Below are positions 4,829 through 27,227 of a stretch of 64,000 nt of DNA, piece after piece. A program made the translations under genes and the position numbers. The notes under the pieces were generated by a model. The model was not told the DNA's origin. It did not search any database and worked only from the letters and a program-made list of their open reading frames with translations. The DNA is taken from contig CM065651.1 of NCBI GenBank assembly GCA_033220425.1, forward strand, positions 3,162,001 to 3,226,000, read 5' to 3'. Positions within the stretch are counted from its first letter, which is position 1. Every line of letters starts with the position of its first letter. The stretch is from Lepraria neglecta (Eukaryota > Ascomycota > Lecanoromycetes > Lecanorales > Stereocaulaceae).

Positions 4829-5340
4829 ATGTCGTCGTATACTGACGCAGAACTAGAGTATTTTTCGACGTGTAAGACCGGAGTCGAACATGCCATCCAG
4901 CTTCCGCCTGCTGGAGAAAATAGAAAATCACCGACGCATTATTGATGCTGCGCCTCGAAGCCGCCTATTCCACCTTGAATAAGGATCTCAGTCAGGCCAC
5001 TGAAATAAGAGTATCCTTGGACATGAAGGACCGAAGCCCAACGCGCCAGTAAGATACCACCTGCCTCAAGAAGAATATTACTGAGAAATTAGAGATGCTG
5101 CAGCTCGAAACCCGCCATTGTGTCTCGAGAAAAAAGGAAATTCGTTATGCCAGGAGCCTCTCGAAAGAAAGCCCTGAGTATCACAACTGCCACCTTTTGA
5201 AGAAATTGTCGAAGGAATCAGGCAAGAAGAGGGCCATCGTTCCGAAACCTTCTCGACCTCTTCGGTTCTTCGCCTTCGAAGATTGCTCGAAGTTCGAAAT
5301 CAAGCGTTGTATCCATTGCTGTGTTCGCCTCGAGTACTAA
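4829..5340 (+). pseudogene. Possible decayed coiled-coil gene
   Basis: A Lys/Glu/Arg-rich frame runs from an ATG at 4945 to a TAA at 5338-5340, interrupted once by an in-frame TAA at 5050-5052. Two segments begin alike (MLRLEAAYST at 4945 and MLQLETRHCV at 5095, exactly 150 nt apart), suggesting an old internal duplication of a helical repeat. A different frame from ATG 4829 encodes an acidic start (MSSYTDAELEYFST). The last 41 nt overlap the 3' end of paralog 1 on the other strand. I do not recognise a family. It could be a dead gene or chance; a short intron removing the stop is not evident. Confidence 0.3.
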
Positions 5341-8013
5341 TGGCGGCGAACACCTCATCGATATCATCATTCGTTCCAAAGCTCCCTCCGGGCATACCGT
5401 CATGCACAGGCCAAGAAGCGTGGGCGTAGGCTGCTTCGTCGGACGATGGAGTTATATTGACAGTGGATGTACCTGCAGAGGAGTAGTCGCCACCCGCCGG
5501 AGTCGAGTGTGGAGCGACGATGCCAGGGACTGATGTCATAATGTGAGGACGATTTGCCGTCGAGTGCCCTTGGAATGAGGTCGGGATATGAGGACTTGAT
5601 ACTGAATGCCCATGGAATGAGGCCTGAATATGAGAACTTGGTGCTGAATGCGCATAGACATTGTCAAAGTGGGCGGAAAGATGATTGTCATTGTAGATGT
5701 CGAATCCGGAGTTTTGCCAATGATTGGGGGTATTCGGTAGGCCACCGTGCCCATAATCCATACCGCCGAAGGTTTCGAATCCGGTTGAATACTGCATATC
5801 CTGGTCATGCATCATGCTGCCAAATTGACTATGGCCGGAACGAGGACCAGGCGAAAAAAAATCTGCGCCGTCATGCGTGTTGTCTGATTGGGAGCGCTGG
5901 TGAGCGTTTGGCGAGAACATGCCAAAGCCAACGCGATAACCACCATAATATGAAGCGGCGTTATGACGGGCAGCCTGGTGACCAAAGGCCATATTTGTCT
6001 GGACAGGGAGCCCTCCCATTTGAACCATATCATAGTCTGAGCCTGCTCCATTAGGGTCGTCTTCGGTGGCTTCGCTATCATCATCCTTGGTGGTGTTGGC
6101 CTCCTCGCTCTTGATCGTGTCTTTAATCTGCCCAGTAAATAGCAATTTAACGATCAAGCTCTTGGCTTTGTTGACAGTCTTGCGTCCAGTCTGGCCTTTT
6201 CTGGGGGAATCATCAACCAAAGACAAGAATGGAGCCCCCGCAGCCACGATCTCCTCTCCATCCTGCTGAACATCGTCCTCCGAATCGGTCTCATCATCAG
6301 ATCCCTCCCCAAACATCTTGCTCTTTCCACGGGATCCTTGACGCAAATCACCGTGCTTGGTCGGAGTATTGACCTCGTCATCAGAGTCTTCAACCTTCAT
6401 ACGACCCTTGTTCTTGGGCGTTGTCTTGACGCGCTTGGCGCTGGGCTTGCCGTAGTCGGCTTCCGAATCGGAAGAGTATTCATCTTTGTCTGATGTCTCG
6501 CTCACGGCTTTCTTTGCCCTGCCTGACTTGGCTGTGGCTGTGCGAGCAGTGGTACGCTTGCTGGGAGTGATCTTGCTTGGAGTCTTAGGCCCGGTGGGAA
6601 TCGTATAGCCGCCGCCGCGACGAAGAGGAGGCGGAACATCAAGGCCTTGGTTTACCATACCTAACAACAATCAACAACGAACATCTTGGAGCTACTACCC
6701 ATATTCACACCATGGGTATGTTCAGTGGACTTACGAGTGCGCAGCTTTGCTAGATGCTGGATCACCGCGCCGCCTGATATGTGCTCTCCCATGGTCTTTC
6801 CGATCGCGTCCCACGGGAGTTGAATGCTATGCTTATTGCATTCAGATTGGATGGTCAAGAGTAGCTTCTTGTCTAGCTCCTCTGTAAGGCTATTAGCGAT
6901 GATCGGGGTCAGGCAGCAGCATATGACCTCAACGAGGATTGGGACCTACCATTCCAACGGATAAGATGACGCTTTTCTGTACGTGGTGCACGCTGTTTAG
7001 CCATGTTTTGTGTTGATGGCGTTTTCTTGACTGTTACTGCCTTTTTGCCTCGTGTAGTGGGGTTCTTCGCAGGAGTCTTTGACTTCAGTAAGTGTCAGCA
7101 ATGCACGCAAACAACCGGGAATCAAGGAGCCTACCGAAACTACGATATCTTGAGAGCTGGTGCTGTTTGGCGCAGTCAAATCCACCAGAGGTGTCTGTAG
7201 CTTTGGCGGTGGTCAGCAGAACTCATGATTAACACGACGGAGAAAGGGGCCTACCGCAATTGCAGCTTGTTCGAGGCTAATATTGCTCAGTACAGCAGAT
7301 TCCTGCACAGGGCTGCGTGGCTTCAGCAAAGTTCAGCAAAGTTCTTGATCAACTACGAGCGGGGACTGTACCGAAAATAGAATATCGTTGGAGTTTGTGT
7401 CGTTTGGATCAGTGAAGTTCGTCACGAAAGTGGGGTCCTTCAAGAAGGGTTCAGTAAAATCCGCGATCAACAAGAAGGAAACTGCCAACCGCAAAAGAAT
7501 CCCTTAGAGACCTAGTGTTTGGATCTGACAGGAATAGATCGTTTGGGTCAACGAACTCCTCTGGAGTACCGAATTGCTCAGAAGCTGGTGTCTTCAAATG
7601 AGGTCAGTAAGATCAACGATCAACAAGGCAGGGAATCAACAACTGTAATCGAAACGTCTGGAAAGCTGCTGCTGTTTGGGCCTGAGAGAACAAGATCGTT
7701 GGGATTGACGGCTTCCTCTGGAACGCCAAGCTCTACACAAGTCTGGTCCTTCAGACGGGTCAGCAAAAGCCACGATTGCCCAGGAAAGAAATCGCCGACC
7801 GTGTTCAAAGTCTCTGGGAAGCTGGCACTCGGGTCTATCGGAAAAAGGTCGTTGAGATCAGTCGTCTCATTCAAGACCGGGGACTGTTATGCAAATCAGC
7901 AAGCTACTCTGGCACAGATGAGAGCAGATATCAAACAGGAGGGGGAGATGTGTCGCCTCCACAGGTACAGCCCATAGAGCGTTCCAGAACCACTCAATAG
8001 GGTAAGATGCCAT
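5300..8013 (-). CDS. SANT-like paralog 1, with duplicated-exon N-terminus
   Basis: Function unknown; probably nuclear. Ten exons: 8013-7969, 7883-7800, 7748-7644, 7591-7490, 7437-7372, 7320-7255, 7200-7135, 7082-6950, 6881-6735 and 6660-5300, giving 724 residues with every junction in frame. Residues 1-178 come from exons 1-7, all phase 0; exons 2-7 look like copies of one unit (for example VNPNDLVLSGPNS, VDPNDLFLSDPNT, FTDPNDTNSND). A basic stretch follows, then a SANT/Myb-like helical domain at about 218-272 (IRWNEELDKKLLLTIQ ... LPWDAIGKTMG ... VIQHLAKLR). The long tail is Lys-rich and acidic with MKVED and IKSEE motifs, then Gly/His/Ser-rich with a 45-nt repeat (SSPHI-type units, near 5574-5660). 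The ATG at 8013 is the first in frame after the upstream exon frame; an internal start (ATG 7004-7002, MAKQRAPR) would drop the duplicated part. The intron after TGGAATG is shared with paralog 2. Confidence 0.8.
7083..7883 (-). repeat. Serially duplicated exon-plus-intron units inside paralog 1
   Basis: Six consecutive introns (7799-7749, 7643-7592, 7489-7438, 7371-7321, 7254-7201, 7134-7083) are 51-54 nt long and visibly homologous. They share a start like GTNGGC, a central GTTGATC-like block, a TTNCTGAC branch region and a GAAG or AAAG end. The exons between them are 84, 105, 102, 66, 66 and 66 nt, all multiples of three and phase 0-0. The unit is about 117-157 bp. Copies are diverged, so the duplications are not recent. 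This is a way of lengthening the protein without disturbing the frame. Confidence 0.8.
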
Positions 8014-10127
8014 ACAACTGGGGCCGCAATGCGATCTTTGCCAATGATATACAGTACAGCAGCACGAGAAGGGGTTGGGAGGTGGGCCGGTGTGATGGTG
8101 TGTTAGGAGGATCGCAACAACGGGCCGGCTGCGTAGCATCCTTGCAGTCCTCGTTCAAGGTCCTCTGCACATCACCGCCGGGCTGCGATGACCACCTCGC
8201 CCAAAAAAGTGAGAGCATGGGTGAACCCCCAACTTCGCAGGATCATTACTACAAACTGAAATCCTTTGGTACGTACCTTGTGACCAATTGACTGACTCCG
8301 ATTCTGAAGCTAATGCTTGATATACTGTATTGATGTAGGAGTGAATTGAAAGAATCGAGCTATGTTCCAAAGATGTGAGATATGTAAGATGGAGGAAAGA
8401 TTGAGGTCCAAAAAAAGTTCGGTCTGTATATGTACTCGAGCTGCGCAACTCAATGGGTGGAGTTCTCTCTATGAAAAAGTGAAGGTTCAGACGGGAAGGG
8501 AAGGTCTGACGAAAAGACTTCCTCATTCACAGGGTATATAACCCGCAGAATCAAGATCGTGGCGGTGAAGGACCAGGGCCAAGCCTGGGTATTAGGATCG
8601 TAAAGAGGGGCAAAGATGGGGGCTTGGTATTTGCGATCTTGATCCTGCTGCTACGATACGAGGTGGCTTTTATTAAACGTAACACAAAGTAAGAGCGGCG
8701 ATACGGATCGGCATTCACAAGGCTGAGATGCATAAAATATTCCTGGCAAGGTGCCTAGCTGGCTTCAAGGCTTTCCTTCAGGATCACGCAAAAGCTCCCG
8801 TGTCTGCATTAAGCCATGACAGTAATTTATGGTGAAGAACGGGAGTCTTCTATTTCCGGCAAAAGCTTCCAGTCCCCACATTTTTGTGCTCCTTTGGATT
8901 CTTCTTATCATAGGAAGCAGAAGTGATAGTACCAAGAAGAACGGCGTCTTCCATTCCCGAAGGCCAAAAGGTTCCACAAGGCAGCAGTCGTGAAGTGACA
9001 GCGTCAGGCAAGACGAACCTTAAGTTTCAGTTCCCGCGGAACGATCGGGGCGCAGCAGCAGACGAGTGAAGGAGATTATAGCCGATGATCCCAGGAATGA
9101 GGACCGCTAGGCAGACAGATAAGATCGAATAATTCAAGTGGTTGCAAAGGGAGGAGGTATGCCCGATCACGGATGCTGCTCTATTGGTTGGTCTACTATC
9201 TACTTCGGGCGAGAGAGCTTGACCAACGGCATTGTCGTAGTACGGCGATCCAATTGGGCATGGATGAAGCATATGCGAATGGATGGACACGTAAGCCATG
9301 GAGAGTGTTTCAATATCTGGGCTTCTTTGGGTGGATTTGCGGTCAGTGTTGTGCAATAGCCGAAAGGGTAAAGATCTAGTTCCTCCAAATTGGAGGGGCA
9401 ATCGTATGCGCGATAACATGATTCGCTATAGGGAAAAGGCTGTGAAGCTAAGGTTAGAAAGTTAAAATAGGCATTTTCTAGAGCATGTATTAAGGGTTTC
9501 AAGTGTGGCAGACATAAAAGAATTGAGTTGGTTGCTAGAGCACAGCAGAGTACAATGGCTTACTATAGGTAGAAGACTGCCATGTCTGTTTGAAACTTTA
9601 AGGCCAACTCGCTCTTAGGTATGTGTTGACGGCTAAAGAAAGGCATAACCTGAAGTGTCGTCAGGGGAGCAGGCAGAAGGTGAAAATGGTGCACCAATAG
9701 GCATACAGCCAGGCCAGCACAGGAAGTTCTAACAGCCCATTGAGGAGTCAGAAGTGCAGAGCAAAGGGTGGAGACACAATAGCTTTCGGAGATCAGATGC
9801 AGCAGCAAGCACCAGCAATGTCACGATGAAGGCACAAGGCAATTGCAAAGACGAATCTATTGTATTTCGAGCTATCAAGATAGCTATCAGAATTCAGCGC
9901 TTCGCCATCATTGCGCAACCAGCACCTCATCCTGTCATATCTTGTCTTATCGAAACCACATCCACCACATATCCATCCTTTCCTAACCACCATGAACGCA
10001 CCAATGCACCATTGCTAGAGCCCAAAAGTCAATATCCAAAGCTTCAATGCTGTCCAGAGAGAAAGGCGAGCGCATAGGTTGTTGACTGTTGTGAGTGATG
10101 AAGCCTGATATCGAACGTGAGGAGCTT
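8014..10127. other. Intergenic, no gene seen
   Basis: This 2.1 kb block includes the upstream region of paralog 1 and the 3' flank of paralog 2. The longest frames (about 130 codons minus near 9027-9419) have no domain, no codon pattern like the neighbours and no splice partners I could support. No RNA gene was recognised. Confidence 0.5.
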
Positions 10128-11100
10128 CTAGTTTAGGAAGGCGCCGTTGCCGACGGTCTTCTCGGCCTCGCGGGCGAGCTTTTTGCTGAAGGTAGCGTCG
10201 TCGGACTCAGCGTCCTCGGTGTCGTCATTGGCCGGGTGTGCGAATTTACGCTTCTGTGTTGATGTTGTCAGTGTGTGTCAGACGTGAAAGATTCATGATT
10301 GCAGCGTACCTTGGTGCTAGACATAGCAGCGTTAGACGCTTCGGCCATGGATTCATATTCGTCAGCTACCTCCGTGACTTTACCCTTTCCTTTCTTGATG
10401 GGGGTGGCGGTGCCCTTCTTGGCGCGTGAGGCAGGAGTAGCTTTAGCGGAAGCTGGAGTAGCCTTCGGGGCTTTAGTCGGAGTGTTCTGGGCGGCAGCGG
10501 CGACAGCAGCTTGGGTGGCTGCTTTTTTCTCTGCCGAGTAATTATGAAAAGCTTCGATAGCGGCAGCGCGCTCGGCCTGCATCTTTGCTTCTGTTTTGGT
10601 TGACTGACCTGGCGCAAGGGGGGAGGTTGGGTGGTTTTCAGCTTTGGCTTGCTTCTTGAGCTTCTTTGCACGCTCTTCCACAGCACGCGGAGTGCACCAC
10701 GGTCCGAACTAATGAACGTTGCTTAGTGGATTGTAAACGAAGGTAGAGAGCCCAGGACCTACCTTCGAGGCAACAATGGCAGAATCGTACTTGTAGTCGA
10801 ATTGAGCCATGATTGCCATGATGAGCTGCTTGTCGGTTTCCTCTGTGCAGATGACGTTTTTAGCAAATAGAGGGCCTTGCAGTTGAAGTCTAAGATGGAA
10901 CGGTGTATTATGGAATGAAAGCAGTCCCAGAAAGGTTATGGAATGCTGAAGATATGTGATCTTTCCAATGAAGGCGAAGCTTTCAGAAGGGATGAGGGAG
11001 AATTGTAGACCGAATGCAGTCTGGGTTTAAAGGAGATACACTTACCATTCCAGGTCATGGTCTTCTTGACCGGAGTGGTATTGGGAGTGGTTGCCGACAT
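10128..11100 (-). CDS. SANT-like paralog 2
   Basis: Function unknown. Exons 11100-11046, 10842-10763, 10708-10310 and 10253-10128 give 219 residues. The N-terminal domain reads MTWNEETDKQLIMAIMA ... SAIVASKFG ... CTPRAVEERAKKLKKQA, the clearest example of the family pattern: Trp, a hydrophobic helix, a second helix, then T-P-x-A-[IV] and a basic recognition-like helix. The middle is Ala/Thr/Pro/Lys-rich (repeated KATPAS) and the end is acidic (NDDTEDAESDDATF). The first intron (203 nt) interrupts TGGAATG|AGGA exactly as in paralog 1, phase 1. Branch and splice sites are ordinary. It is transcribed toward paralog 1. A nuclear DNA- or chromatin-binding role is inference from domain shape only. 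Confidence 0.85.
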
Positions 11101-13190
11101 CTTGACGAGTCTACGTTGGTCGTAGTTAGAGTTGTGGTTATTTCAATGTTCTGTTCGATAGGAGGGTGGTCAGTATCATCAAAATCTCTTTTGTTTGGCC
11201 GGCACGTGGACTCAAGAACGACAAGGATTGCTGGTGTATGTATATGAAAGAGGAGGTTAAGTCTTAGGAGGTTGGTGTGTTGAGCCTGAAGGAAGAGGGT
11301 GGAAGGGGTGGGTAGCTGAGATTCAAGCTCACGATCGGGCGAGAGGCTCTCTCAAGCCTCCGTTTGGCTTGGTTTGAGCAGCTGCAATGATTTTCACTGC
11401 TGCATGTAGATGGCCAGAGGCCAGTCTAGTGCGGTGCCAAAGCGTTGGAGGTGGAAGGAAGAGGAATGCAGAAGGGTAAGAGCCAAATCCTTGCTTGAGC
11501 TCACATTCCAAGTAAGAAATTTCCTCCGAACAACCTCTTTGCTGTTGCACGCAAGAGCTCCTTGAAGACTCTTGGTGATGCAGGTAAGTAGAGCTGTTGA
11601 GCTGGTGCTGTGCAGTGTGTTGAGGTTGGAGGGAAGGGAGAATGTAGAGGGTGAGAGCTGACAACCAAGCTCACGGTCGGAGCGAGGAGCCACCTCACGC
11701 ATTCTGCCTGCCCGTCGGAAGTAGTGACCTGCTGAGAGGTCTTGCTGAAGCAGCTAGATGGAGTTTGAAACTTGTCCAGTGCTTTTGCGTGGGTGCTCTT
11801 GCGTGGGTGGAGGGGAGGGAGGACTGCAGAGGTGGAGGATCTCGAGCTCACCCTCAAGCTCAAGCTCAAAATTGAGCTGAGAAATCACCCTCACAGATGC
11901 TATGGGCTTGTTGTCCTGGCTTATCGCGTAGCAGGGACCAATGACGGCTATGGATAGGGGATGGAAGAGGAAGTAGTGAACTTACTGGAGTTGTTGAGGT
12001 TCGAAAGGGAAGTGAAGGAGGATGTAGGAGGGAAGGTGTTGAAAGGAAGAAGAGGAAGGATTGTTTGTACTTCGCCCCGGAAGTGAATGGTAGGACTTTG
12101 AGCACCCGTCTAGTCTTGCCCCTGTGGTCGCCTAGTAAACAAATGGAACTCCACTCCTGGCGTTGCTGGGAGTGACGACGCGGCTTTCTTTAGGCTTACA
12201 ACCCTCGCCATGATTGTCCCTGTGGCCTTAGTAAATCTGTATGTAGATTAGGGGAAGGCTGTAGAGACTTGTAGCCGCCTGAGACGCATTAGCCGGGCTA
12301 AGCGTAGGCAGACTTTGAGTAAATTCCGGAGATCAACCGGCGACTTCACTTGCATCTCCATCACAATGAAAACACTGTGAAAGATGCACAGCGACATAGA
12401 TAAAGCTAGCTCGAGGGGGTATAGTAGCTATGGACGCTCTTGAGCAAAGATACGCCAGAATCCATGGCCTGAGGTATGGGTGTTTTCCGCTGACCCAAGC
12501 TACGTACAAGGGCCCTGGAGCTCGAGGCAGAGTTTCCATGGCAGGGGGTAAGATCGAGCTCATAGTGTGACTTCTGCAATAATAATAAATTCTTTGGGAA
12601 GGCTGTCTTCTGCCGGGCAAGAGAGAACGAGAGGAAGTATTAGGAGAATACTTTGCCTGGCGCAGCTTGCTATGTTGAATTGCGCTCTTTACATCTGAGG
12701 GCAAACAAAAGAAAATGAAGAAGCGCCCATAGCTACACCATCCTAACGATAGGCAGTAGGGGTTAAAATCCCTAACCGACTTGGAAAAGACCAGGTTTGT
12801 ACATCATCATGTGCCAGAAGGTCGTCCGCTATCAGTGCTGATCGTGTTTGTGCTCTTGACGAGCCCTTGTATTTATGTCCTTGAGCGTCATTGTTGTTTT
12901 CCTTTAGAAAGAAAAGGCGGGCAGGAGCTCGTGGTGTGCAAAATTCATGTTTGCAAAATATATTGTTCATCTCAACTTAGGGGAAAAGGACCATGCGGAA
13001 GGAACGACCCGCACGTGGCAAGCCCAGTCTAGCACACGCCATCGGTAATACTAGAACCACCATAGGAAATACAATGAAAAGGTAAACCGATGTTGTAACG
13101 GATGCGAGGGATTCTAGCCGACGTTGGAACAGACCGCAGTGTACACCACCAGCGCTTTCTGGAACATCCACCAGTAATTATCCACCACAT
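11101..13190. other. Intergenic with weak diverged repeats
   Basis: This is the upstream region of paralog 2 and the 3' flank of paralog 3. Segments near 11259-11345 and 11601-11690 resemble each other (GTGTTGAG ... GGAAG ... CAAGCTCACG-TCGG-GCGAG), suggesting an old duplication of promoter DNA. No supported gene was seen, although minus-strand frames of about 120 codons occur. Confidence 0.35.
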
Positions 13191-13925
13191 CTACTCATTA
13201 ATTACAATGCTTTCCGGCACAACGCCCTTGACAGGCTTCACGTCCAGACCAGCAGTCGGCCCAAACATGTCCCTGGATCCAACATCTTGCCCATCAGACG
13301 CACCGAATGAAAGAAAATCGCGGAATATTGCTGAGTCATCGGCATCATCCAGGCCTATGGTGTACTTGCTGGGGTCCTTTTCCTTCGCAGACGTCAAAGC
13401 CTGAGGAGAAGCTTGGTTGTCCGTGGACTCCTCTTTGACCGCCTCGCCCTTGATCTTTTTCTTGGGAGGCTCAGGCTTGACCTTGCTAAGGCCCTCGTCA
13501 TCATCCGTGTTTGTATTCGTTTCCACAAACTGTGCATGCTTCCGCTTTTTGCTGGACGCGGGGTTCGTGGGGTTCGTAGCCGTGGCTGAGGACGAGGTCT
13601 TGGGTTTGGTAGAGGGAATTGGAGTGTCGGCAATGGTAGAGTTGGTTTGATATATCCCGTGCGCCTTCATCATACGTTCATAGCGTTTCGCGCTATAACC
13701 ACTATTAGAATCTCTAGTTGGAGAGGATTGTTCCAGGTGTGAGACGTACGCGGCGCCCTTGGAGCAGATATCACATTCCATCCGAACAGCTTCGAAATCG
13801 ACCTAAGTCCGAGTCAGCTAAGCAAGAGAGATGATGAGGTGAGTTGTACTTACTTTGCCATTGTTGGAATAACGGATGCAGCTAATTAGGAATTTAAACT
13901 GTTCTTCGTTACTGGCCGGAGCCAT
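13191..13925 (-). CDS. SANT-like paralog 3 (VDF / KRYERMMK type)
   Basis: Function unknown. Exons 13925-13854, 13802-13750 and 13692-13191 give 208 residues. The domain is MAPASNEEQFKFLISCIRY ... NGKVDFEAVRMEC ... SKGAAAKRYERMMKAHG. It lacks the leading Trp of other members but has the same helix-[VLI]-[DN]-[FYW]-helix-basic-helix layout. Intron 1 falls in phase 0 just before VDF, the position used by paralogs 4, 5 and 7. Intron 2 (13749-13693) is 57 nt and has no stop, so an unspliced reading stays open and hides it; splicing restores GAAAKRYERM. The tail is Thr/Pro-rich, then basic/acidic with VKPEP, IKGEA and VKEES motifs. An upstream in-frame ATG at 14042 would add 39 Thr/Lys-rich residues; I prefer 13925 because the domain starts there. 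Confidence 0.82.
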
Positions 13926-14301
13926 TTGGGAGAACGGTGCTGGGGTGGCTCTGGGTTTCAAGGTCGTCACTGAGATTCTTGTCTTCTTCAAGGTCGTCGC
14001 CGAGAGTCTTGTCGCCTTCAACGTAAACACGAAAGTGACCAAGGAGCTCTTGCTGCTGACGGTTGATGGCTTGGAGGGTTGCGAATTACTCGTTGAGGTC
14101 TTTAATGAAGGCTTCTTGGCGAGCTGAAAGAGCTTGAAGGGAAGTAATGACGGCTTGCTGGTCAGCGATGATGTCTCTGAGGTTGGCGATGATGCGATTT
14201 GCTCCTTGACAGGTGGGTAAGTGGAGGGGATCTTCTAGGTCAGAAGGGGAGGTGGTGAGGTGACAGGTACTGACTACGAAGTAAGTTGACCATTGTCGCA
14301 T
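13909..14301 (-). pseudogene. Small coiled-coil reading frame broken by one stop
   Basis: From ATG 14301 a frame of 71 codons ends at TAA 14088-14086, and the same frame then stays open for 58 more codons to TAA 13911-13909. Both parts look helical and Gln/Glu-rich (IIANLRDIIADQQAVITS, LSARQEAFIKDLNE, then ATLQAINRQQQELLGHFRV), with an acidic end (GDKTLGDDLEED). A possible intron (GTAGTC...CAAG) could replace the Ser/Thr-rich start. It may be a recently broken small gene or one that truly ends at 14086. Its end overlaps the paralog 3 start region. Family unknown. Confidence 0.35.
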
Positions 14302-15049: not shown

Positions 15050-15593
15050 TTAGCTTGGATGTCTCCCCTCATCATCATTGACTGCGGCGAATCCACGCTT
15101 CTTTAGAGTTGACTTGGTCATGGCGCCGGCTCCTTCAGCACCAGAGATCTTCTGAATCAGACGACGAAAGCAGGTGCGGGCGTTGGATTTGTCCGTATAG
15201 CCGTATTCTTTGGCGACATTTTCGAAGTTGACCTGGGTTGTTTGGTCAGACAAAGTCTTGAGAAGAGCAGGATATGTGGCCGAGAACGGGCAAACAGCCC
15301 AGAGTTGGTGCAGAAGAAGACATGGGAGGAGTAGGATAAGGAGCCAACCCCCGGGAAACAGCGCAGAGTTGGAGCAGAAGAAGACATGAGTAGAGCAGAA
15401 TAAGGGGCCGAGTCCCAGAAAAGAGCCCAGATTTAAGCTACAAGACGTTGTGGTAGGAGCAGGCGGAGGGGATCAATCCAAGAAGAGCGCGCCAGCTGAT
15501 TCTGGAGGCGGTTAGGTGAAGACCAACTTAAAGAGAGCTTGTGCTTACCAGATCGCCAATATCGCCCGTGAGTTTCTTAAGGACGACGTGCAT
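15050..15593 (-). CDS. SANT-like paralog 4 (VNF type), probably truncated
   Basis: Function unknown. Exons 15593-15549 and 15232-15050 give 75 residues: MHVVLKKLTGDIGDL, then VNFENVAKEYGYTDKSNART-CFRRLIQKISG. The phase-0 intron just before VNF matches paralogs 3, 5 and 7. Two oddities suggest decay. First, the frame upstream of the chosen ATG continues the domain (TTLSDRDLAL) but the natural start ATG (about 15648-15646) is one base out of frame. Second, the expected donor for a last exon at about 15010 reads GAGGGGAGAC instead of a GT, so the frame runs to a TAA at 15050. It may be a pseudogene or a short functional domain protein. The 316-nt intron carries a 64-bp tandem repeat. Confidence 0.5.
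15259..15427. repeat. 64-bp tandem repeat inside paralog 4 intron
   Basis: CAGAGTTGG-(T/A)-GCAGAAGAAGACATG recurs at 15300 and 15364 with an exact 64-bp period, and a third partial copy lies at 15259-15299. The copies differ by scattered substitutions. The repeat accounts for over half of the unusually long 316-nt intron. Confidence 0.75.
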
Positions 15594-16160
15594 CAGGGCA
15601 AGGTCGCGGTCGCTGAGAGTAGTAATTGTGGGTAGTGGAATCGGTCATCGTCGGTAAGTGAGGTTTCGGCTACATATGTTGTGAGCAGCTGTGCAATTGT
15701 GATGAGGACTCGGGGTGATACTTACGATTGATGTATGTTTGCTTGAGCAAGCGATTCTGGGTAGCGAGCGCTGTAAGTGGAATCCTCGAAGGGAGGGAGG
15801 TTAGAAGGTGGATGGTGATGAAGGAAAGTGAGAGGGCGATTGTGAAGTATTTGATATCACCCGATTTCCACTAGCCAAGGCTAAACCTATTACAGTCAGG
15901 TCTTCGCCTCTCATCAGGACGTTTCGAAAGGTCTCGCAGCAATGAATGCTATCTGATCGAGGGTGGCAAGCCGGCTAGGCTTCCCTGCTGAGAGGCAAAC
16001 TCCCCCTATGCTGTATGCCTGACCCGCTTTCAAGATAGCACTTCAAGCAATGGTATAATATGGACCAGTACATCTCGTAGGAACATCAGATCGCAGGAAG
16101 CCTCCCTTGTTCAATGTAGTATAAGCTCTATCTAATTCTAACAACGGCGGCGTACAGTGC
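15594..16160. other. Upstream region of paralog 4
   Basis: This spacer includes a candidate 5' leader intron for paralog 4 (GTAAGTATCACC at about 15726 to ATATGTAG at about 15673, minus strand). No gene was seen in the remainder. Confidence 0.4.
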
Positions 16161-16905
16161 TTAGTCCTCCCACGCAGGTTCTGGCTTTACAATTGGCTCT
16201 TTGATGTCTTCGGCATCCTCCTTTGCAACGGACAGCTCCGGAGAGAGCTGAGGAGCTGCCTTGTCTGCTGGGAAAGGAGCCTCAAAAGCCTGCTGATTGT
16301 GGGAAGGCGCCTCTGGAGACATATCCTGCGTCGCTCCGATATTTGTATCTCCTGCGTTCGCCCAAGATACCTCGTCTTCCTTCGTCTCCTCTTTGACAAT
16401 TGGCTCTGGCTTCGCCTCCAGCTCAACATCCTGCATGATCTCATCCTCCAATCCTGGCTCGGCCTTGACGACCGATTCCCCCTTGATGATATCCTCCGCC
16501 TTGACCCCAGGCTCTCCCTTGACCATCGACTCCCCTTTTATACCAGACTCTTCCTGTCCGTTGGCGTTGGTGTTAGCGGTCTCGGATGAAGGGGGTTTGG
16601 CAGGCTTGGTCTTCTTGTGATGAGGAGCGGTAGGTCTGGGCTTGCGAGGCTGAGAGGCAGTGCCTTCCATTTGCTGTTTGAAACGAGAAAACCGCATGCG
16701 GGCAGCGTGGCCGTTCGTGATGTCTAGGCCGTTCGCGACCTCCTGCCAGTCAATCTATCTGGAGCATTAGCTGGCCATGTTGACGTGGGCTAGTCACGAA
16801 GGTCAAGCTTACAGATTTCAGGTCCAGCTGCTTCAGGATTGTGTAGAGGAACTTGGCTATCGCGCCATCTGTGGGCATGGTGCGGTTTCTTCGAAGGCTT
16901 GCCAT
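16161..16905 (-). CDS. SANT-like paralog 5, tail with many SUMO-type motifs
   Basis: Function unknown. Exons 16905-16813 and 16754-16161 give 228 residues. The domain is PTDGAIAKFLYTILKQLDLK ... IDWQEVANGLDI ... AARMRFSRFKQQMEG, split by a phase-0 intron just before IDW as in paralogs 3, 4 and 7. A basic linker (RKPRPTAPHHKKTKPAK) follows. The tail then holds at least seven psi-K-x-E motifs in about 120 residues (IKGE, VKGE, VKAE, IKGE, VKAE, VKEE, VKPE), the consensus for SUMO attachment, in an acidic Ser/Pro-rich setting. An upstream in-frame ATG at 16998 exists, but 16905 places the domain at the N-terminus like its relatives. Nuclear location is inferred. Confidence 0.83.
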
Positions 16906-18062: not shown

Positions 18063-18590
18063 ATGGTCGGGAAAGTTTGGGATACTGAGAATAAGTTCAA
18101 GTTATTGCTCACTATCATCGAAATCTTGGACCCTAAGGCTTTGCCTTGGGGCGAGATTGCCGCTGCCATGGGAGAGGGTTACACTGTTGAGTCAGTCAAG
18201 TAAGTACCATGCAATCCTTAGTCTGTGCTCATTTTGCTGACAATGCATAGACAACAGTACAGCAAGGGTATCAAGAAGGGCTTCAAGTCTGGCGGAGCTA
18301 CTGATGCCAACGGCAACAGGAACGGCACTCCTACCTCCGCCAAGTCCACCAAGACTCCTGCTACCAAGGGTACTGGTAAAGGCCGCAAACGCAAGGCCGT
18401 AACCCCTGCTGTCGCTGAAGATGATGACGAGGAAGCTACCGTCCTGCTCGCCAAGAAATCTCGCAAGATAAAGCATGAGGACGCTGCGGAGGGTGAGGGT
18501 ATTGACCCCGCTGTTGACACTCTTGGTGCGGAAGTCTTCAAGGCTGATGAGGACTGCGAAGGAGGCGTGGGCCTCAAGCATAATAAGTAA
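18063..18590 (+). CDS. SANT-like paralog 6
   Basis: Function unknown. Exons 18063-18199 and 18251-18590 give 158 residues. The domain is VWDTENKFKLLLTIIEIL ... ALPWGEIAAAMGEG-YTVESVKQQYSKGIKKG. It closely follows paralog 1 in the LPW-[DG]-x-I block. Its intron, phase 2 after ESVK, is not shared with the others. The linker is Thr/Lys/Gly-rich (TKTPATKGTGKGRKRKA), followed by acidic residues and an IKHED motif. At the 3' end a perfect donor (AA|GTAAGT) overlaps the stop; splicing to CACCACAG would change only the last residues (HNK to HNNL). It is one of two members on the plus strand. Confidence 0.83.
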
Positions 18591-19684: not shown

Positions 19685-20523
19685 TCAAACACCCTCATCC
19701 ATCCCAAAATACCCATTCCCATCCATCATCCCCGCAGCCATCCAGTACCCATCCCCATCCGCCACAACCTCTCCCTCTTCCAAGCCAGTGCCGCTCAAGA
19801 AGCTGCTCGTGCTGCTCTCGGACTCTTCCTTGATTCCCTTGACGGTGTTACCGCCTTTCTTGGTAGGAGTATTGTTCGTAGATTTGCTGACGCGGCCAGA
19901 GACGGTTTTGTCTTTCTTGGGAGTGGTGGTGGTGGTTTTTGCTTTCTTGGGGGTGCTGGTGGTGTCTTTGCCGCGGAAGGGGGCCTCAGGACGAGCACCG
20001 GAGTCGATTTCTTCTTTGAGGACGGCGGCTTCCTTTTTGATTATGCGGAAGCGGCCTTCGATGCTGTCGTAGGTGGCACCTAGGGAGGCGTTAGAGTTTG
20101 CTAGGAGGAGGAGGAGGAGGAAGAGCATAGTTGGCATTGGATTACTAAAAATGAAGGGAGGGGGAAACGTACCGTTGCCGTACATGGTGGCGATCTTGCG
20201 GTAGTCAAGCTAAAGGGGAATTTCTGTCAGTGATATACTTGGAAAAGGTGCATAGCGTTGAGCGGTGGCGGAGTGTGCATTCTTTCTGAATCCAAGCAAG
20301 GCAGGCGAGACGAGCGAGGAGAAGGTGGCTGCAAGGAGAGTGGTAGAAAGTACGAAGTACAGAGTATAACTCTCAGATGTTAGACGGTGAGACGCAGAGC
20401 AGACAATGCATTCAATTGGCTTGGACGTTAAGCAGAGTCATGACTTACCTTCATGTCCTGAGCTGCGACCATGGCAGCGAGGAGGCGAGTGAACGCATCG
20501 GGCTCCTTCCAGTTGACAGGCAT
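19685..20523 (-). CDS. SANT-like paralog 7
   Basis: Function unknown. Exons 20523-20449, 20209-20173 and 20079-19685 give 168 residues. The domain is MPVNWKEPDAFTRLLAAM ... MKLDYRKIATMYGNGATYDS-IEGRFRIIKKEAAVLK. It carries two shared introns: phase 0 before LDY (as in 3, 4, 5) and phase 1 at the Gly before ATY (as in 8, 10, 11), so it links the two intron classes. The middle exon is only 37 nt. The tail is Thr/Lys-rich (PKKAKTTTTTPKKDK) with an IKEES motif and a Met/Gly-rich acidic end. Intron 2 contains a short GGA/TCC run. This version of the domain seems the least diverged of the set. Confidence 0.87.
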
Positions 20524-21985
20524 GTTGAAAGACTAGTTGCGGGATTGATTGCGTCTTGTTTATAGGCTGATGATGTTATGAAAGGTTGTGGTTGTGCTCG
20601 ATGAGTAAGGTTTGTGAGGATCTGTGGTGAGGTAAGTGAGTTGGGGTCCGGGTGCAGAAGGTGAAGCTCTATGGGATGACGATTAGGAGACAGTGATAGT
20701 AGGAGAGAAATCGATCTCGAGGCCAGGCTCTTGACAGGAGTAATATGGAATAGACTCACTGTAGTGTAATTGATTGATGGAGATGTGTTTCAAGTTGTTG
20801 AGCCTTCAGTTGAGATGGGGGCCGCAGAATATGTGGCAAAATTTGCTATGAGATCACTGGATAAAAGTGAATTGTCTCCAGTTGTGCTCCAAGAGCAGCA
20901 CAGCAACTCTACCCGGGTTTGCACAAGCCAATGAAACATACGTAGCACAGCAAACGTAAGACACAGTACCTAGTATCTTGACCTGTTTGCTCGAGAAGTA
21001 CAGCAATTATTCGATCGAAGAGCACAGCAACGGAATGACAACAGACTCAGGGCAAGGAGGCAACACTTATACACAGCCCACCCTCCTCCCCACCAAGCCA
21101 CTAACATCCAACCAGAGGCCATGATGGTTTCTGGCACACTCGCCCAAATGCCGACATTCTCCTTTCCTTCTCCGCAGTACAACTCAGCTCGCAAACTGCC
21201 CAACTTGTCACAATGCCCCACGCTATCATCGCTATGACTCACACTCCTTCCTCGAAACTTGACGCATCACAATTTGAGGGGCATTCTAGGGTGTTTCCAG
21301 GAGCAACGTTACCTATCACATTCTAGAAGATTGGGCGTCGTCGAGTTTGGACTCGATCGGCATCACGCTAATGCAGGCGCCATGCTTCCCCGGAAAGCAA
21401 ACGTGAGCCGCGTTCTAGCGTGCTGAGCGACCAGGGATCGATTGGGCAGGAACGTGAACTGCCAGCAGAACGACACGGGGGGTCCCGGGAACTGGGGAAG
21501 CTAGGTGCCAGATTGGACCTGACGTTCGGTTGGGAAGGATTGCGACAGGAGATGTCGAGCTTGAAGATGCTGCTAAGTGTTAGGGAAGCGAGAGAAGTAG
21601 TTCTTCATGCAGGCATGACGAGCTTTGGAATCACTGATCGGGGAGAACTGTTTGCTCTTTGCAGCAAGCCGTCATGTAGCAAACAATCACATTGTGATGC
21701 AGTCTTCGAGTCCGCCCCTGCAGAGATTGGCGTTCTGCAGCTCTACAGATCTAGCGTCAACAGGGAACAGGGATGCTCGAACGCGTGAAACCGCGTAAAT
21801 CGGGTTCGCACTGCTGCAAGCACTTTACACGTAGACCCTTGTAGAAAGTGGGCTTAATCTAGCAACTTCGAGTCATAAGTGCAGGATTTAGATGGCCAAG
21901 GAAAGAGACTGCGAGACTTTGGTTGGGCTATCTGCAGAGCACGAGCATTGAGCTAAATTACATGTTGGAAAAGATCCACCACTGT
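20524..21985. other. Upstream region of paralog 7, no gene seen
   Basis: The only long frame (plus 21420-21788, 122 codons) has no domain and no supported splice sites. No RNA gene was recognised. Confidence 0.45.
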
Positions 21986-22320
21986 GATCTCGAAGCGTTG
22001 GAAACTTCCACCTTTCCGCCATTATTGCGCTGATAACGCTGAGAATGCGCATGAGCACATGCTAGAGATACATGAGATTGGCCCAGATCAATGGATCTTG
22101 AGCCTTTGAAACGTCCACTTCTGTCCATTACCGCCTTGAAAACGCCGAACATGCGTATGTGTACCACGTAAGAAAGCCGCAAATGTGGTAACGATCCATT
22201 ACCATGGCCTTGAATCGTGGAAAATGTCCACCTTTTCGTCAATTACCGCCTTGAGAACGCCAATGATATGCATGAAAACGTGGAAGAAAGCCACAACAAT
22301 GTCTCGTCACCATGAATCCA
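21986..22320. repeat. Degenerate tandem repeat, about 110 bp x 3
   Basis: Three successive units begin near 21986, 22094 and 22206. Each contains a gaatc/gatct-like start, GAAA-(A/C)-GTCCAC or CTTCCACC, CCATTA-CGC-TTGA-AACGCC, an ATGCGTATG-like block and CGTGGAAGAAAGCC or ACGTAAGAAAGCC. Units are about 108-112 bp and well diverged. The array ends about 20 bp from the stop codon of paralog 8, so it forms or abuts its 3' untranslated region. Confidence 0.65.
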
Positions 22321-22342
22321 TCTCGCAGTTGCCGGTAGTAGC

Positions 22343-23172
22343 TTAAGCTGCCACCTCAGTCTTGACAGCGTCAATCTTCTTTGCAACACCGAACTCCTCG
22401 TCGCTAGCGTAAGGGTCCTCGCTGTCGGACTTGTCGGTCCCAAAGACCTTCTCCCCATCAACATCAATGGCATTTACCCCAACGAAAGGATCCTCTAGAG
22501 CTTTATAGTCCTTTTTGGCGGTCTTACGTGGGGAGATACGAGCCTTCGTGACGCGACCACCGATAGTCTTCTCGCGCTTTGCTGATGGAGTCGGGCTGGT
22601 ATGAGCGGCGGCAGCGTCGTTTCTCAGTGTCCACGCCCTCAGCATCGGTTTCAATGGAATCCATGGTCTCATCATCGCTGCAGATATGTCAGTATTTGAG
22701 CCAAAAGTAGTATGTTCTTCGTCATACCTGGCATCATCCCTCAACATTCCGCCACGCTTTTTACCCTTGCCTTTGCCCTTTTCGCTGGGTACTATTCCTG
22801 CACGCTTGCCGATCTTCGGGGTATAGGCCTTTGCAGGAGAGGACTTTGACTCGGAAAGTCCCAACGCTGCGCCCTCTTTGCGGAGGACTCCTAAGCGGTA
22901 TTGGATAGCCGCGACGGGAACATTAGGACCTGGAAGTCACATTAGTGGGCAAATTTCCATTAAGTGTGAGCAAAAAATTGGGAAAACGCGCCCAACTAGT
23001 GCGGTCGTAGGTGTATCTTCCAAGTAATATGACAAACTACACGGGCAAACTTACCAAAAATAGCGGCGAGCTTTTTGTAGTCGAGCACCCCAGCGTGCAT
23101 AATCACCAAGGCTTGCAGCAATTTGGCATTGTTCTCCGGGGTCCATTTTACGGCCGGAAGTCCTTGAACCAT
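22343..23172 (-). CDS. SANT-like paralog 8, ambiguous internal splice
   Basis: Function unknown. Exon 1 is 23172-23055, exon 2 is 22929-22728, and exon 3 ends at 22343. The domain is AVKWTPENNAKLLQALVIM ... GVLDYKKLAAIFGPNVPVAA-IQYRLGVLRKEGA, with the phase-1 intron at the Gly shared with 7, 10 and 11. The linker is basic (KGKGKGKKRGG). The last intron has a good donor (22727), a TACTGAC branch site and acceptor CTGCAG (exon from 22677). That choice gives a plausible acidic stretch (SDDETMDSIETDAEG) but leaves the conserved-looking tail (GGRVTKARISPRK ... VKTEVAA) out of frame. Using a GAG acceptor 10 nt later (exon from 22667) gives an intact 214-residue protein. Either the later site is used or a one-base indel has occurred. 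The tail ends in a VKTE motif. Confidence 0.75.
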
Positions 23173-24932
23173 TTTGACGGTGCTAGAGAATGACCACGGT
23201 TAGATCGAGGATCGCGATAGGCCCAAGACAAGTGGAGTGTGATTGTTTTTGTGAAGCAATACAGAGCATTTGTGAAAGATCGGAAGGGTGGATCTTGGAT
23301 CAAACTGAGGTGGACGAAGCGGCTATGCATGGATCGATAGAGAATGCAAGCACTTACTTTGTTGTTGAGTAGTTGAATATATGTGACTGCTGTGTTAGAC
23401 CAAGAGTAGAGTTCGAGAGTCAAGTTGAAGCGGGCGATGGAGTGTAAGAGTTGAAAGAGGTTGTGAGTTATAAGAAAATACGTTGGCTTGAGATTCACTT
23501 TCAAGGTGTTTGTACGAACCAAAAAGAGGCCGTCAGCTTCCAACAGGCCGAGGCTGACAAAATTCAGGCTCGAAGTCAAGTGAGGGGCTGATTTAATAGG
23601 ACAGACAGATTTGTCAAGAGGCAAATATTAGAAAGGTCCGGAAGCCTGCGAGCACTTTGCTGGACCAGACAACCTTGTCAAATGTTCAAAACCCCGAAGG
23701 ATAGTTGTTTGCCACAAGCTCCTTGGCTTGAAAAAGTGAATACTTGAGGGTATTCCAATCGGCCTATCAAGGGCTAAGAGACAATTGCTACAATAAAAGT
23801 CGGGCAAGGCTGAGGAATTGCGGACAATGCGTCATCTTCCTTGGGAGGCAACCGCCAGTTCCTGTATCCATCGCATAAGATAGCCTAAGGGAAGCCCAGA
23901 GGATGGGAAGCCGAACATCTGGTCCGATTTCTTTGGCTGTGCTAACAAAGGGACTCGATACTAAAACGAACGGGTTCGACACTTGGACCGTCCAGCCCCT
24001 ATCTACCTGACCGCTCTCTGGGCCTGAGCGTCCTGCAATCTCCTCCCCTCGGCTATAATAGCTGGCGAGTGACTCATACATGCAGTTGTGTACGCAATCC
24101 TGTAGAAATATGCATGAGGTTCAAGCAAAGTTTCCCAGACAACTGTAGCGCCATTAATCGCCCTAACATAATTGAGTTTGCTCAGGGGCCGCACGCTATT
24201 TTAGCGCAGCGGATCTCGTGAAACGCGTTATTGTTTCTTGGCATAGCGACGACATATCGTCGCGTCACTTGCAGTATGGGGTATCGTACGCAATGTGATT
24301 GATAGCGATTTGGCTTGCAAATGCCCGCTATGATGTAACGGAATACGAGTCTGGGCTTTGCCTCCCAAAGTGGGGATGAGCGGTTTTCGGATCTGGAACT
24401 TGGGAGCAGATCCATGGGTACTCGTTGAGTCTAGGTGGGTCCATCGAGGATGTTCCAAAGCCAGTGTCAATTTCAAGCATGCACAACTAGCAATATCAAA
24501 GCGGTTCTATCCTGACATGCTTTCTACTGCAATTGCCAAAGGAGACAAGTACAGTTGCACTTTTCATGTAATCACAGCTTTTTCATCCTGCTCTATCATC
24601 CACAAGAAAAGAACTTCTGCAATTCACTTCAAGGGCCTAGTGGCTTTGGATCGCCCCAACTGGTTCTTCGACTTCACAACCCCCCTCCTGCCTCTTAACT
24701 CTCACATCCACTCTTCAGACCCCCAAATTTCTTAACAAACCATCCAACTTAGCTGGAGCACCTTACACTTAGACACATCATCGCTCTACCTCATCTCCTC
24801 CACTCTTAGCCTCCATCATCTAGACTGTCCTTAGATCTCAAGTCCGCTCTCACTTCCAATAACTCAATCCCACAAAGTCAAGACCCAACTTCCGACTTTC
24901 CACTCCAAGTCTCACGCACAACGACATCCAAG
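23173..24932. other. Divergent spacer between paralogs 8 and 9
   Basis: A 1.76 kb region between divergent genes. The right 350 bp is strongly pyrimidine-rich on the plus strand (CTCACATCCACTCTTCAGAC), marking the paralog 9 promoter or leader. Minus frames up to 158 codons (23148-23624) show no domain and are treated as chance. Confidence 0.5.
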
Positions 24933-25666
24933 ATGCCTATTAAGTGGACCCCCGAAATTGACCAAATCGTAAGTCTCCTCCAACATTCCATCCTATTCTC
25001 CTCACTTCCACCCTCTCCTCCGCATCACCACCCTCACTAACATCCGCCCACCCAAGCTCCTCCTCAAAATCCTCGAAACCTCCAACGTCAACGCCGACGT
25101 CAAAGCCATCTCAGCCGCCTGGCCCGACAACTTCGAAAAGCCCACCCCCCGCGCCATCACCGAGCGTCTCGTCAAAATCCGCGGCACAGCCAAATCCGCC
25201 GGTGCAGCCAGCCACTTCAGCGTCTCCGGAGCCAAGACTACGAGCCAGGGCGGTACGCCTCGCAAACCACGTGCGCAGAAACCGAATGGGGTGAAGAAGA
25301 ATACTACACCGAAGAAGGATAGAGGTAAGGCGGGTGCTGGGAAGCGTAAGCGTGTGGGGAGGATGAGCGATGAGTACGTCTCTCTGTGCTCGTGTGTATA
25401 GTGGGAGATGGTCGTGCTGACTGCTGGGTGCTAGGGATGCGAGCGATGATTCTGAGGCTGAGGGGGACTTCAAGTCTGAGTATAATGATATCAATGCCTC
25501 TGATGATGCGGAGTCTCCGAGCAAGAAGACTAAGACTGGTGGCCAGGGGAAGGTCAAGGTTGAGGTAGATGATGTTGAGGAGGATGGACAGTTTCATGAT
25601 AGCGGATTCGAGACTGGGTTTGGTGGTGATGGTACTGGGGAGATGGAGGAGGGGATGTTTGCCTAG
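24933..25666 (+). CDS. SANT-like paralog 9
   Basis: Function unknown. Exons 24933-24968, 25057-25373 and 25435-25666 give 194 residues. The domain is MPIKWTPEIDQI, then LLLKILETSNV ... VKAISAAWPDNFEKPTPRAI-TERLVKIRGTAK. Intron 1 is phase 0, eight residues from the Trp, exactly as in paralogs 10 and 11. The tail has a basic linker (GKAGAGKRKRVGR), acidic blocks (DASDDSEAEGD), a KVKVEVDD motif and a Gly/Glu-rich end. Third-position base use is C-rich in the first half and G/T-rich in the second. It shares the divergent region with paralog 8 and converges with paralog 10. Confidence 0.87.
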
Positions 25667-26335
25667 AGGGGTGGGGAGGAATTCGGAGGACGCTTGAGGG
25701 GAATTAAGATGGAGAATTTTATGGTGGCATGAAGGAGCGGAGCTGCGTTGTGTATCTTATGCATGCATTGCAATTTTTCTTATTACCGCAGAGGAGGAAA
25801 AGCGGATAGGAAAGGCAGCGCATGCATGACTTGACTTGGCGGTAATGGCAGTCGTTCATGCAACATGGATTTTAGCACAGATCAAATACAATCGCATGCA
25901 ATCAAATCAATCAATCACAAGCACACAATGTCCTCATGATCATTTGTCCGTTTCATTGGATTTCATTATATTTCCTGTATTTCCTTCCCTTGCGCTGTCA
26001 TTGCTACCAACCGACCATCCTAGCTGCCATCCTTAAAGTTGAATAGTAACGACAGTGACCAGGGTCACTCTCCTTACTGGCGAGCCAGAACGGTAGCCAC
26101 GACCACCGTATGACTGCCTCAAGAGAACGATCGTCGCATCGATAAGAAACATCCATCGCATCAAGAAAACCATCCACCGCATCATGAAACCGCCATCGCA
26201 TCACAGAACCACCTTGCGCAAAATAGAATCCACGTCCACCTAGAAACCGAGCGAAAGATCCAACGAGGCCAAGCTAAACAATTGACATTGAGAGGGTTCC
26301 AGCCAGCAAGATCATCGCTCTGACAGTGAAGGCCC
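25667..26335. other. Convergent spacer between paralogs 9 and 10
   Basis: 3' flanks only. Around 26120-26215 there is a short run of similar units (CATC-GCATCA-GAAACCATC). No gene was seen. Confidence 0.45.
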
Positions 26336-27227
26336 TCAAGCGTAATCAGCCTGAGTATCCTCCAGCCCCTCCTCATCCTGATGAGCACGGACGCCCTCCA
26401 CAGCGTTACCCTTAACCTTCTTGCTCGGAGATTCATCATGCTCATCATGCTCTTTCTCCCCACCCTCACCCTCCTCAACAGGTTGACATCCATGAGCAAC
26501 AAAATTGGCATAAGTGGCCTCAGCGCTCTCAGCGGTATCGAATTGACCTGGGACGACGGGCGCAGCCTTGCGCTTGGTTCTAGCTCCAGCGCTAAGAAGA
26601 GTAGTTTTTACTTTAGTGCCTGGAGTGGTTTTGGCGGTAGTGGCAGGGGCACGAGGACGCTTGTTCGGAGCACGTGTGCGTGGGACGGGAAGACCGAGGC
26701 CTGGGGAGGCGGAGGCGGTGGGGAAACAGTGCTTGTCGGCGACTTGGCGGAGTCTGGCGATGCGGTGGGTAATTGCTTTGGGGGTTACGTCTGGAGGGTG
26801 CGTTAGTGTGCTGGAAGAGAAAGATGAAAGCTTGTGAAATGAAAGGTAGAAAACTTTGAAGGAATTGAGAAAAGATGGGTAGCAACGAGGACGTTGGAAG
26901 ACAAGTAGGGATGGGAATGATAGTTGTTAAAGACAAAGAGCAAAGAGCGGTAGAGTATTTGTTGACGCGGGCATCGAGCCAAGAGTGAGGTAAAGAGGTT
27001 GGCAGCTTACCGTTACCCATAGCTAAAGCAAGAGCCTGGTAATCAAGCTTGACGTTATGAATCTTTAAGACGTACATGAAGAGCTAGATATGAAGTTAGC
27101 ACGTTGTTGCAAGTGAGCAAACATCAACCAGAAGTGGATGTCAAGACTGAGGTAAATAGCCCGAGGACTGAGATTTGAGATCGGAATCAATATATACCTT
27201 CGCGTCAACCTCTGGGCCCCACTGCAT
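26336..27227 (-). CDS. SANT-like paralog 10
   Basis: Function unknown. Exons 27227-27198, 27083-27011 and 26790-26336 give 185 residues. The domain is MQWGPEVDAK, then LFMYVLKIHNVKLDYQALALAMGN-DVTPKAITHRIARLRQVADK. Both introns are shared: phase 0 eight residues after the Trp (9, 11) and phase 1 before VTPKAI (7, 8, 11). The tail is Pro/Ala/Lys-rich (RAPNKRPRAPATTAKT), then acidic with a KKVKGN segment. Unlike most members I see no psi-K-x-E motif. This is the right-hand end of the main cluster. Exon 1 is only 30 nt. Confidence 0.86.

What the first reader, a model, noticed from the sequence alone, without database searches (positions are those of the whole stretch)
5300..27227. Cluster of ten diverged SANT/Myb-like paralogs
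Seen: ten of the eleven supported genes between HSP60 and the kinase (the exception is a broken coiled-coil frame) have one plan: N-terminal helical domain of about 50 residues, Lys/Thr/Pro-rich linker, acidic tail. The domain pattern is W-x2-E...LL-x2-[IL]-L, then [VLIP]-[DNW]-[FYW]-x3-[IVL]-A, then [TS]-x2-[AS]-[IV]-x2-[RHQ]-[FLY]. Identity between copies is low, so genome annotation would list them as unrelated hypotheticals. Known: SANT/Myb folds bind DNA or histone tails. Inference: an old local expansion under fast divergence, perhaps a chromatin-binding family analogous to clustered zinc-finger genes or a self/non-self system.
Basis: partly seen in the sequence, partly recalled or inferred. 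Interest (0 to 1): 0.85.

Follow-up and report, generated by a model that had tools for sequence, protein, structure and literature searches.

The report
Cluster of diverged fungal Myb-like genes
A stretch of this fungal chromosome carries ten (and, a little further on, an eleventh) old, much diverged copies of one gene for small Myb-like proteins, probably DNA-binding and perhaps controlled by the SUMO tag; the domain kind is known, the local family appears little studied.

Summary
Ten genes at 5300-27227 splice into frames with one plan: a helical domain of about 50 residues, a K/T/S/P-rich, usually basic linker and usually an acidic tail. They are true paralogs. A profile from nine domains scores the held-out tenth above all 2000 shuffles for nine of ten (C barely); D fails but reaches the Pfam cut-off. 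Thirteen intron pairs coincide in column and phase, against 0.84 expected. C, D and E meet Pfam Myb_DNA-bind_8; the other seven meet no Pfam model. A splice-aware scan found no other in 190 kb of flanks. New: the tails are rich in the SUMO-acceptor consensus Psi-K-x-E (19, against 1.9 in shuffles). Best reading: a locally duplicated family of nuclear single-Myb proteins, probably DNA-binding, possibly SUMO-regulated. Fold comparison did not confirm the Myb fold. Self/non-self has no support. Other fungi could not be searched.

The parts
5300..7004 (-). gene A: exons 6950-7004, 6735-6881, 5300-6660 (520 aa; start codon chosen, upstream exons not excluded); domain at residues about 12-73, long low-complexity tail
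   Evidence: spliced frame; held-out 31.0 bits; AF2 of exon 2 gives three helices, pLDDT 90
10128..11100 (-). gene B: exons 11046-11100, 10763-10842, 10310-10708, 10128-10253 (219 aa)
   Evidence: held-out 34.4 bits
13191..13925 (-). gene C: exons 13854-13925, 13750-13802, 13191-13692 (208 aa); Myb_DNA-bind_8; 3 SUMO-consensus sites
   Evidence: PF22980 80.5 bits
15050..15614 (-). gene or gene remnant D: exons 15549-15614 (5' end unresolved), 15050-15232; Myb_DNA-bind_8 at the cut-off
   Evidence: PF22980 27.2 bits (cut-off 27); fails the held-out test
16161..16905 (-). gene E: exons 16813-16905, 16161-16754 (228 aa); Myb_DNA-bind_8; 7 SUMO-consensus sites in the tail
   Evidence: PF22980 66.8 bits
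18063..18590 (+). gene F: exons 18063-18199, 18251-18590 (158 aa)
   Evidence: held-out 31.3 bits
19685..20523 (-). gene G: exons 20449-20523, 20173-20209, 19685-20079 (168 aa); shares one intron site with C, D, E and another with J, K
   Evidence: held-out 28.7 bits
22343..23172 (-). gene H: exons 23055-23172, 22343-22929 (234 aa)
   Evidence: held-out 30.4 bits
24933..25666 (+). gene I: exons 24933-24968, 25057-25373, 25435-25666 (194 aa)
   Evidence: held-out 22.8 bits
26336..27227 (-). gene J: exons 27198-27227, 27011-27083, 26336-26790 (185 aa)
   Evidence: held-out 54.9 bits
50768..51714 (-). gene K, an eleventh paralog outside the finding: exons 51706-51714, 51515-51541, 51379-51451, 50768-51204 (181 aa); AT-hook-like PRGRPR in the tail
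   Evidence: 41.7 bits against the ten-gene profile; AT_hook 13.1 bits, below its cut-off of 17.4
27230..27244 (-). 15-base leader TTCAAATCACCGCCA just before the start of J
   Evidence: two exact copies found in the genome, here and before K
51717..51731 (-). the same 15-base leader just before the start of K
13926..14205 (-). helical-looking frame broken by an in-frame stop, just upstream of C; not counted as a member of the family
   Evidence: by eye

Best explanation
A locally duplicated family of small nuclear proteins. Each has one Myb-like three-helix domain with a basic third helix that probably docks on DNA, a basic linker with nuclear-localisation-like clusters, and a low-complexity, often acidic tail that in 8 of 11 copies carries SUMO-acceptor consensus sites. 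Shown by sequence: common ancestry, clustering, domain kind for C and E by Pfam (D at the cut-off), shared intron sites, excess of Psi-K-x-E. Inferred: DNA binding through helix 3, nuclear location, disorder of the tails, SUMO conjugation as a switch of activity or partner binding. Copies probably arose by tandem duplication and then diverged in binding specificity.
For: Pfam Myb_DNA-bind_8 over the cut-off for C, D, E. Held-out profile test 9 of 10, C barely; K predicted by a profile that had not seen it, 41.7 bits. Profile-profile match between the seven without Pfam names and C, D, E: P 0.00018, probability 48.6%. Thirteen coincident intron pairs against a mean of 0.84 and a maximum of 7 in 10,000 simulations, sites shared by A-B, I-J-K, C-D-E-G and G-J-K. 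Neighbours more alike than in random order: 34 of 5000 permutations reach the observed value for the ten genes, 9 of 5000 with K. Helix 3 net basic in 11 of 11. Psi-K-x-E 19 in 11 tails, 0 of 3000 shuffles reach it (mean 1.9, maximum 8); without E still 12 against 1.6 (maximum 7); six rearranged motifs show no significant excess; 11.1 per 1000 residues against 1.46 in 37 ORFs of 300 codons or more around. A strict DNA pattern for W-x2-E-[ND]-x2-K-L-[LF] occurs at 4 places in the genome, two of them F and H.
Against: No Pfam model over its cut-off for A, B, F, G, H, I, J or K. Foldseek and VIA-align 2 listed no Myb chain for the model of A, only weak matches, mostly bacterial sigma factors; the second model (I) was poor, pLDDT 67.7. 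The seven-domain profile alone gives only E 0.023 to SNAPC4, C, D, E alone no Myb chain, and in the eleven-domain run a tau chain scored 0.01, so summed repeats inflate such E-values. Similarity does not fall with distance in gene order over all pairs (rho -0.06, 1565 of 5000). Psi-K-x-E is absent from the tails of B, D and J. No expression, binding or SUMO data.
Confidence: 0.6

Rival explanations
1. SANT-type chromatin readers: the domain binds histone tails or partner proteins, not DNA, and the acidic tails act as histone contacts.
For: Acidic second halves in 9 of 11 tails; low similarity to classical Myb repeats.
Against: Helix 3 is net basic in 11 of 11; K carries an AT-hook-like motif, under Pfam's cut-off; Pfam names C, D, E a DNA-binding Myb domain, which is a name, not a test.
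Confidence: 0.2
2. An ordinary fungal family whose copies lie apart in most relatives; the cluster is a leftover of old tandem duplication with no shared function. (Not exclusive of the best explanation.)
For: Relatives outside the cluster exist: K 24 kb away, and a PF22980 match on C3. I recall similar short proteins in many filamentous ascomycetes; no call shows this.
Against: SUMO-consensus sites are shared by 8 of 11 tails.
Confidence: 0.45
3. A self/non-self or genome-defence system in which rapid divergence of binding domains is selected.
For: High divergence (median identity 20%) and clustering.
Against: No incompatibility-type domain (for example HET or NACHT; role recalled) among the Pfam matches of the ten proteins; the neighbours look like housekeeping genes by eye; polymorphism unknown.
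Confidence: 0.05
4. Domesticated Myb-like second proteins of Harbinger transposons.
For: Such transposons carry a Myb/SANT-like protein (recalled).
Against: DDE_Tnp_4 matches at E up to 0.01 lie at two places, on C4 and C5, none on C6; the genes have shared introns. Harbinger Myb proteins themselves were not compared.
Confidence: 0.05

Closest known systems
Pfam PF22980 Myb_DNA-bind_8 (Myb-like DNA-binding domain)
   Same: C, D, E score 80.5, 27.2 and 66.8 bits, cut-off 27; one short domain near the N-terminus
   Different: A, B, F, G, H, I, J and K stay under the cut-off (best J, 15.2 bits, domain alone); they have a W at the start of helix 1, and all but G do not share the C-D-E intron site
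SNAPC4 Myb repeats and c-Myb (PDB 7xur, 1guu)
   Same: W-x2-E-x-D in helix 1 and a D/W-x3-I/V pattern in helix 2
   Different: several repeats there, one domain here; single-repeat matches are not significant
Fungal MYB regulators: the ten MoMYB genes of Magnaporthe oryzae (PMC8660761, abstract and passages seen); MYT3 (PMC3983115) and MylA (PMC11199622), listings seen
   Same: Myb domain in a protein with long disordered parts (MoMYB)
   Different: MoMYBs have one or two repeats and, in the passages seen, do not group closely with each other in a tree; here single-domain copies sit side by side on the chromosome

Membership tests
PF22980 Myb_DNA-bind_8 (genes C, D, E) | score over the curated cut-off of 27 bits | tested here: met
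   C 80.5, E 66.8, D 27.2 bits: 3 of 10 proteins scanned
PF22980 Myb_DNA-bind_8 (genes A, B, F, G, H, I, J, K) | score over the curated cut-off of 27 bits | tested here: not met
   filed as diverged relatives, not members
Myb/SANT fold | three-helix bundle with helix-turn-helix-like geometry | tested here: inconclusive
   three helices for A exon 2, pLDDT 90, pTM 0.64, and for I, pLDDT 67.7; no significant fold match for A
Myb (DNA-binding) rather than SANT | basic third helix (criterion recalled) | tested here: met
   net +1 to +5 in 11 of 11
Myb (DNA-binding) rather than SANT | binds DNA | not testable with these tools
   needs a binding assay
SUMO substrates | Psi-K-x-E sites (consensus recalled) in the tail | tested here: met
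   19 sites in 8 of 11 tails, 0 of 3000 shuffles reach it
SUMO substrates | conjugated to SUMO in the cell | not testable with these tools
   PF11976 gives 14 matches in the genome, which the search does not sort into ubiquitin and SUMO

The most novel reading that the evidence does not exclude
A locally amplified set of single-Myb DNA-binding proteins with SUMO-gated tails: a fungal counterpart of clustered zinc-finger genes, in which duplication and divergence of the domain make new DNA specificities while a common SUMO switch links them to one silencing or activation machinery.
Probability: 0.25. Interest if true: 0.75.

Novelty: new variant of a known kind. Interest (0 to 1): 0.5.

Why it matters
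Showing that eleven near neighbours are one family joins three Pfam-named genes to eight that no Pfam model names, gives a seed for a wider profile, and offers concrete tests (DNA specificity, SUMO conjugation) of what they do. If the divergence proves to be in DNA specificity, it would be a fungal case of transcription-factor expansion by tandem duplication.

Tried and rejected
Structure search: Foldseek and VIA-align 2 gave no Myb chain for the model of A exon 2; the absence is not evidence against the fold. The model of I was too poor to search. Single-protein genome searches with H, I, K, J and F found only the query's own gene. A first DNA pattern was mis-spaced by one residue, could not match even gene H, and is void; its nine places held no domain in the splice-aware scan. 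The mended pattern, W-x2-E-[ND]-x2-K-L-[LF], finds 4 places: F, H, one on C6 whose match holds an in-frame stop, and one on C1 that was not followed; the reversed control finds 2. It can see only genes without an intron in helix 1. Side hits of PF22980: C3:1276197 and C5:4498394 scored 21.7 and 13.3 bits with the ten-gene profile and look by eye like other Myb genes; C3:2995306 gave none. Common upstream elements: only J-K (0 of 200 shuffles) and a weak C-I match (1 of 200) scored 26 or more among the 45 pairs of ten starts, D left out. Transposon origin: no support. Papers: PF22980 occurs in no full text of the library. The other searches on Myb, tandem duplication, expansion and SUMO listed no paper whose listing describes such a cluster; they cover open PMC papers only and I did not open most of them. 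From PMC5470089, PMC7179667 and PMC8660761 I saw passages; of the rest, listings.

Limits of the numbers: splice sites were chosen by hand with the domain in view, so the intron test is not blind; it counts D, and columns near gaps are uncertain (H lies two columns from the G-J-K site). In the held-out test hmmsearch reported 1635 to 1867 of the 2000 shuffles per gene; the unreported count as lower. The ten genes match the scan profile by construction; K and the empty flanks are the independent part. The scan allows one intron of about 45-350 bases per peptide, so members with other structures could be missed. The tail of I was typed with one residue left out and the last residues of exon 3 missing; the full model has the same two sites. 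The tail of D is 31 residues. The background ORFs are mechanical; what they encode was not checked.
Full report
The window is G000:C6:3162001-3226000 of a 42-Mb genome in 11 contigs. Introns and gene content look to me like a filamentous ascomycete; no call names the organism.

Gene models. I rebuilt the ten genes with GT..AG introns. Nine run from ATG to stop; D has no clear start and a short tail. Each begins with, or soon reaches, a domain of about 50 residues, followed by a tail whose first half is rich in K, T, S, P (fraction 0.33-0.59) and net basic in 9 of 11, and whose second half is net acidic in 9 of 11, counting K.

One family. The domains are only 8-34% identical (median 20%), so I tested relatedness four ways. 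First, a profile from nine domains against the tenth and 2000 shuffles of it: no shuffle reached the real score for nine of ten, though C is marginal (6.6 against 6.5 bits), and D fails. Second, Pfam: C, E and D meet PF22980 Myb_DNA-bind_8 with 80.5, 66.8 and 27.2 bits (cut-off 27); the other seven meet no model's cut-off. Third, a profile-profile comparison of those seven with C, D, E: P 0.00018, probability 48.6%. Fourth, intron sites: of 18 introns in the domains of eleven genes, 13 pairs coincide in column and phase, against 0.84 by chance (maximum 7 in 10,000), in the groups A-B, I-J-K, C-D-E-G and G-J-K. G shares one site with the Pfam-named genes and another with J and K, and so links the two halves of the family.

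An eleventh member. A splice-aware scan of 254 kb (100 kb left, the window, 90 kb right) with the ten-gene profile gave the ten and one more place, at 51.38 kb, and nothing else at E up to 5; a twelve-sequence profile gave the same eleven at E up to 20. That place is a four-exon gene, K, with the same plan; its spliced domain scores 41.7 bits against the profile that never saw it, best of 2000 shuffles 13.2. J and K also share TTCAAATCACCGCCA at the same distance before the start codon; the exact 15-mer was found at these two places only, its backward reading nowhere. So the family spans at least 46 kb. Elsewhere, PF22980 finds one clear relative on C3 (40 bits, 54.5 with neighbours in the frame), whose intron could not be resolved. 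A strict pattern for helix 1 finds F, H and two other places in the genome, one of them with an in-frame stop. Single-protein searches cannot see relatives this diverged, and control stretches from other contigs could not be fetched, so the genome-wide number is unknown.

Duplication. Genes next to each other are more alike than in random order (34 of 5000 permutations; 9 of 5000 with K), but similarity does not fall steadily with distance (1565 of 5000). Local pairs such as A-B, D-E, G-H and I-J fit tandem duplication; F and I lie on the other strand.

What the domain does. Sequence points to Myb: Pfam for three; and the ten-domain profile lists ten distinct PDB sequences, nine of them Myb or SANT proteins (1ug2 and 2yum counted as such from memory), led by SNAPC4 at E 1.8e-7. 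That value sums weak repeats (best single ones 0.48 and 1.3); the seven-domain profile alone gives 0.023, C, D, E alone nothing of the kind, the eleven-domain one 0.00034, with an unrelated tau chain at 0.01. AlphaFold2 predicts three helices for A exon 2 (pLDDT 90, pTM 0.64, four sequences) and, poorly, for I (67.7); fold comparison was inconclusive. The third helix is net basic in all eleven (+1 to +5), while helices 1-2 are net acidic in nine of eleven (mean -1.6; bounds by hand): the polarity of a DNA-binding Myb repeat rather than a SANT domain (rule recalled). K has an AT-hook-like PRGRPR, under Pfam's cut-off.

The tails. Psi-K-x-E, the SUMO-acceptor consensus (recalled), occurs 19 times in the eleven tails: E 7, C 3, A, I, K 2 each, F, G, H 1 each, none in B, D, J. 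Shuffled tails give 1.9 (maximum 8 in 3000). Six rearranged versions of the motif show no significant excess (the closest, 4 against 2.1, is reached by 431 of 3000 shuffles), and leaving out E still leaves 12 against 1.6. ORFs of 300 codons or more around the cluster have 1.46 per 1000 residues, the tails 11.1. What those ORFs encode was not checked, so the shuffles and rearranged motifs are the better control. I take this as the most telling clue to function: SUMO-regulated nuclear proteins. It remains a prediction; the PF11976 search does not separate SUMO from ubiquitin.

Judgement. It is an instance of a known domain kind, partly named in Pfam, in a clustered arrangement and with an excess of SUMO-consensus sites; I found no account of either in the searches made, which do not reach most subscription journals. 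I put 0.93 on common ancestry, 0.7 on DNA binding, 0.5 on SUMO regulation and 0.05 on a self/non-self role.

Noticed in passing
window 50768-51714 (-): Eleventh family member K with a 9-base first exon and an AT-hook-like motif, between a UFD1-like ORF (49398-50432 +) and an RNA-binding-protein-like ORF (53442-54998 -), both named by eye.
   Followed up: yes
window 27230-27244 and 51717-51731 (-): Identical 15-base leader before J and K, with no third exact copy found in the genome: a kept translational or promoter element, or a trace of duplication.
   Followed up: partly
L002 1375-1752 (G000:C3, around 2589277-2589480): PF22980 relative on another contig; the intron before its second helix has no canonical donor in frame.
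   Followed up: partly
window 13926-14205 (-): Helical, coiled-coil-like frame with an in-frame stop directly upstream of C; origin unknown.
   Followed up: no
window 16161-16560 (-): Tail of E holds seven Psi-K-x-E sites, several as V/I-K-x-E-P.
   Followed up: yes
G000:C1:4942855-4942883 (-): Match to the strict helix-1 pattern outside the cluster; not fetched or tested.
   Followed up: no
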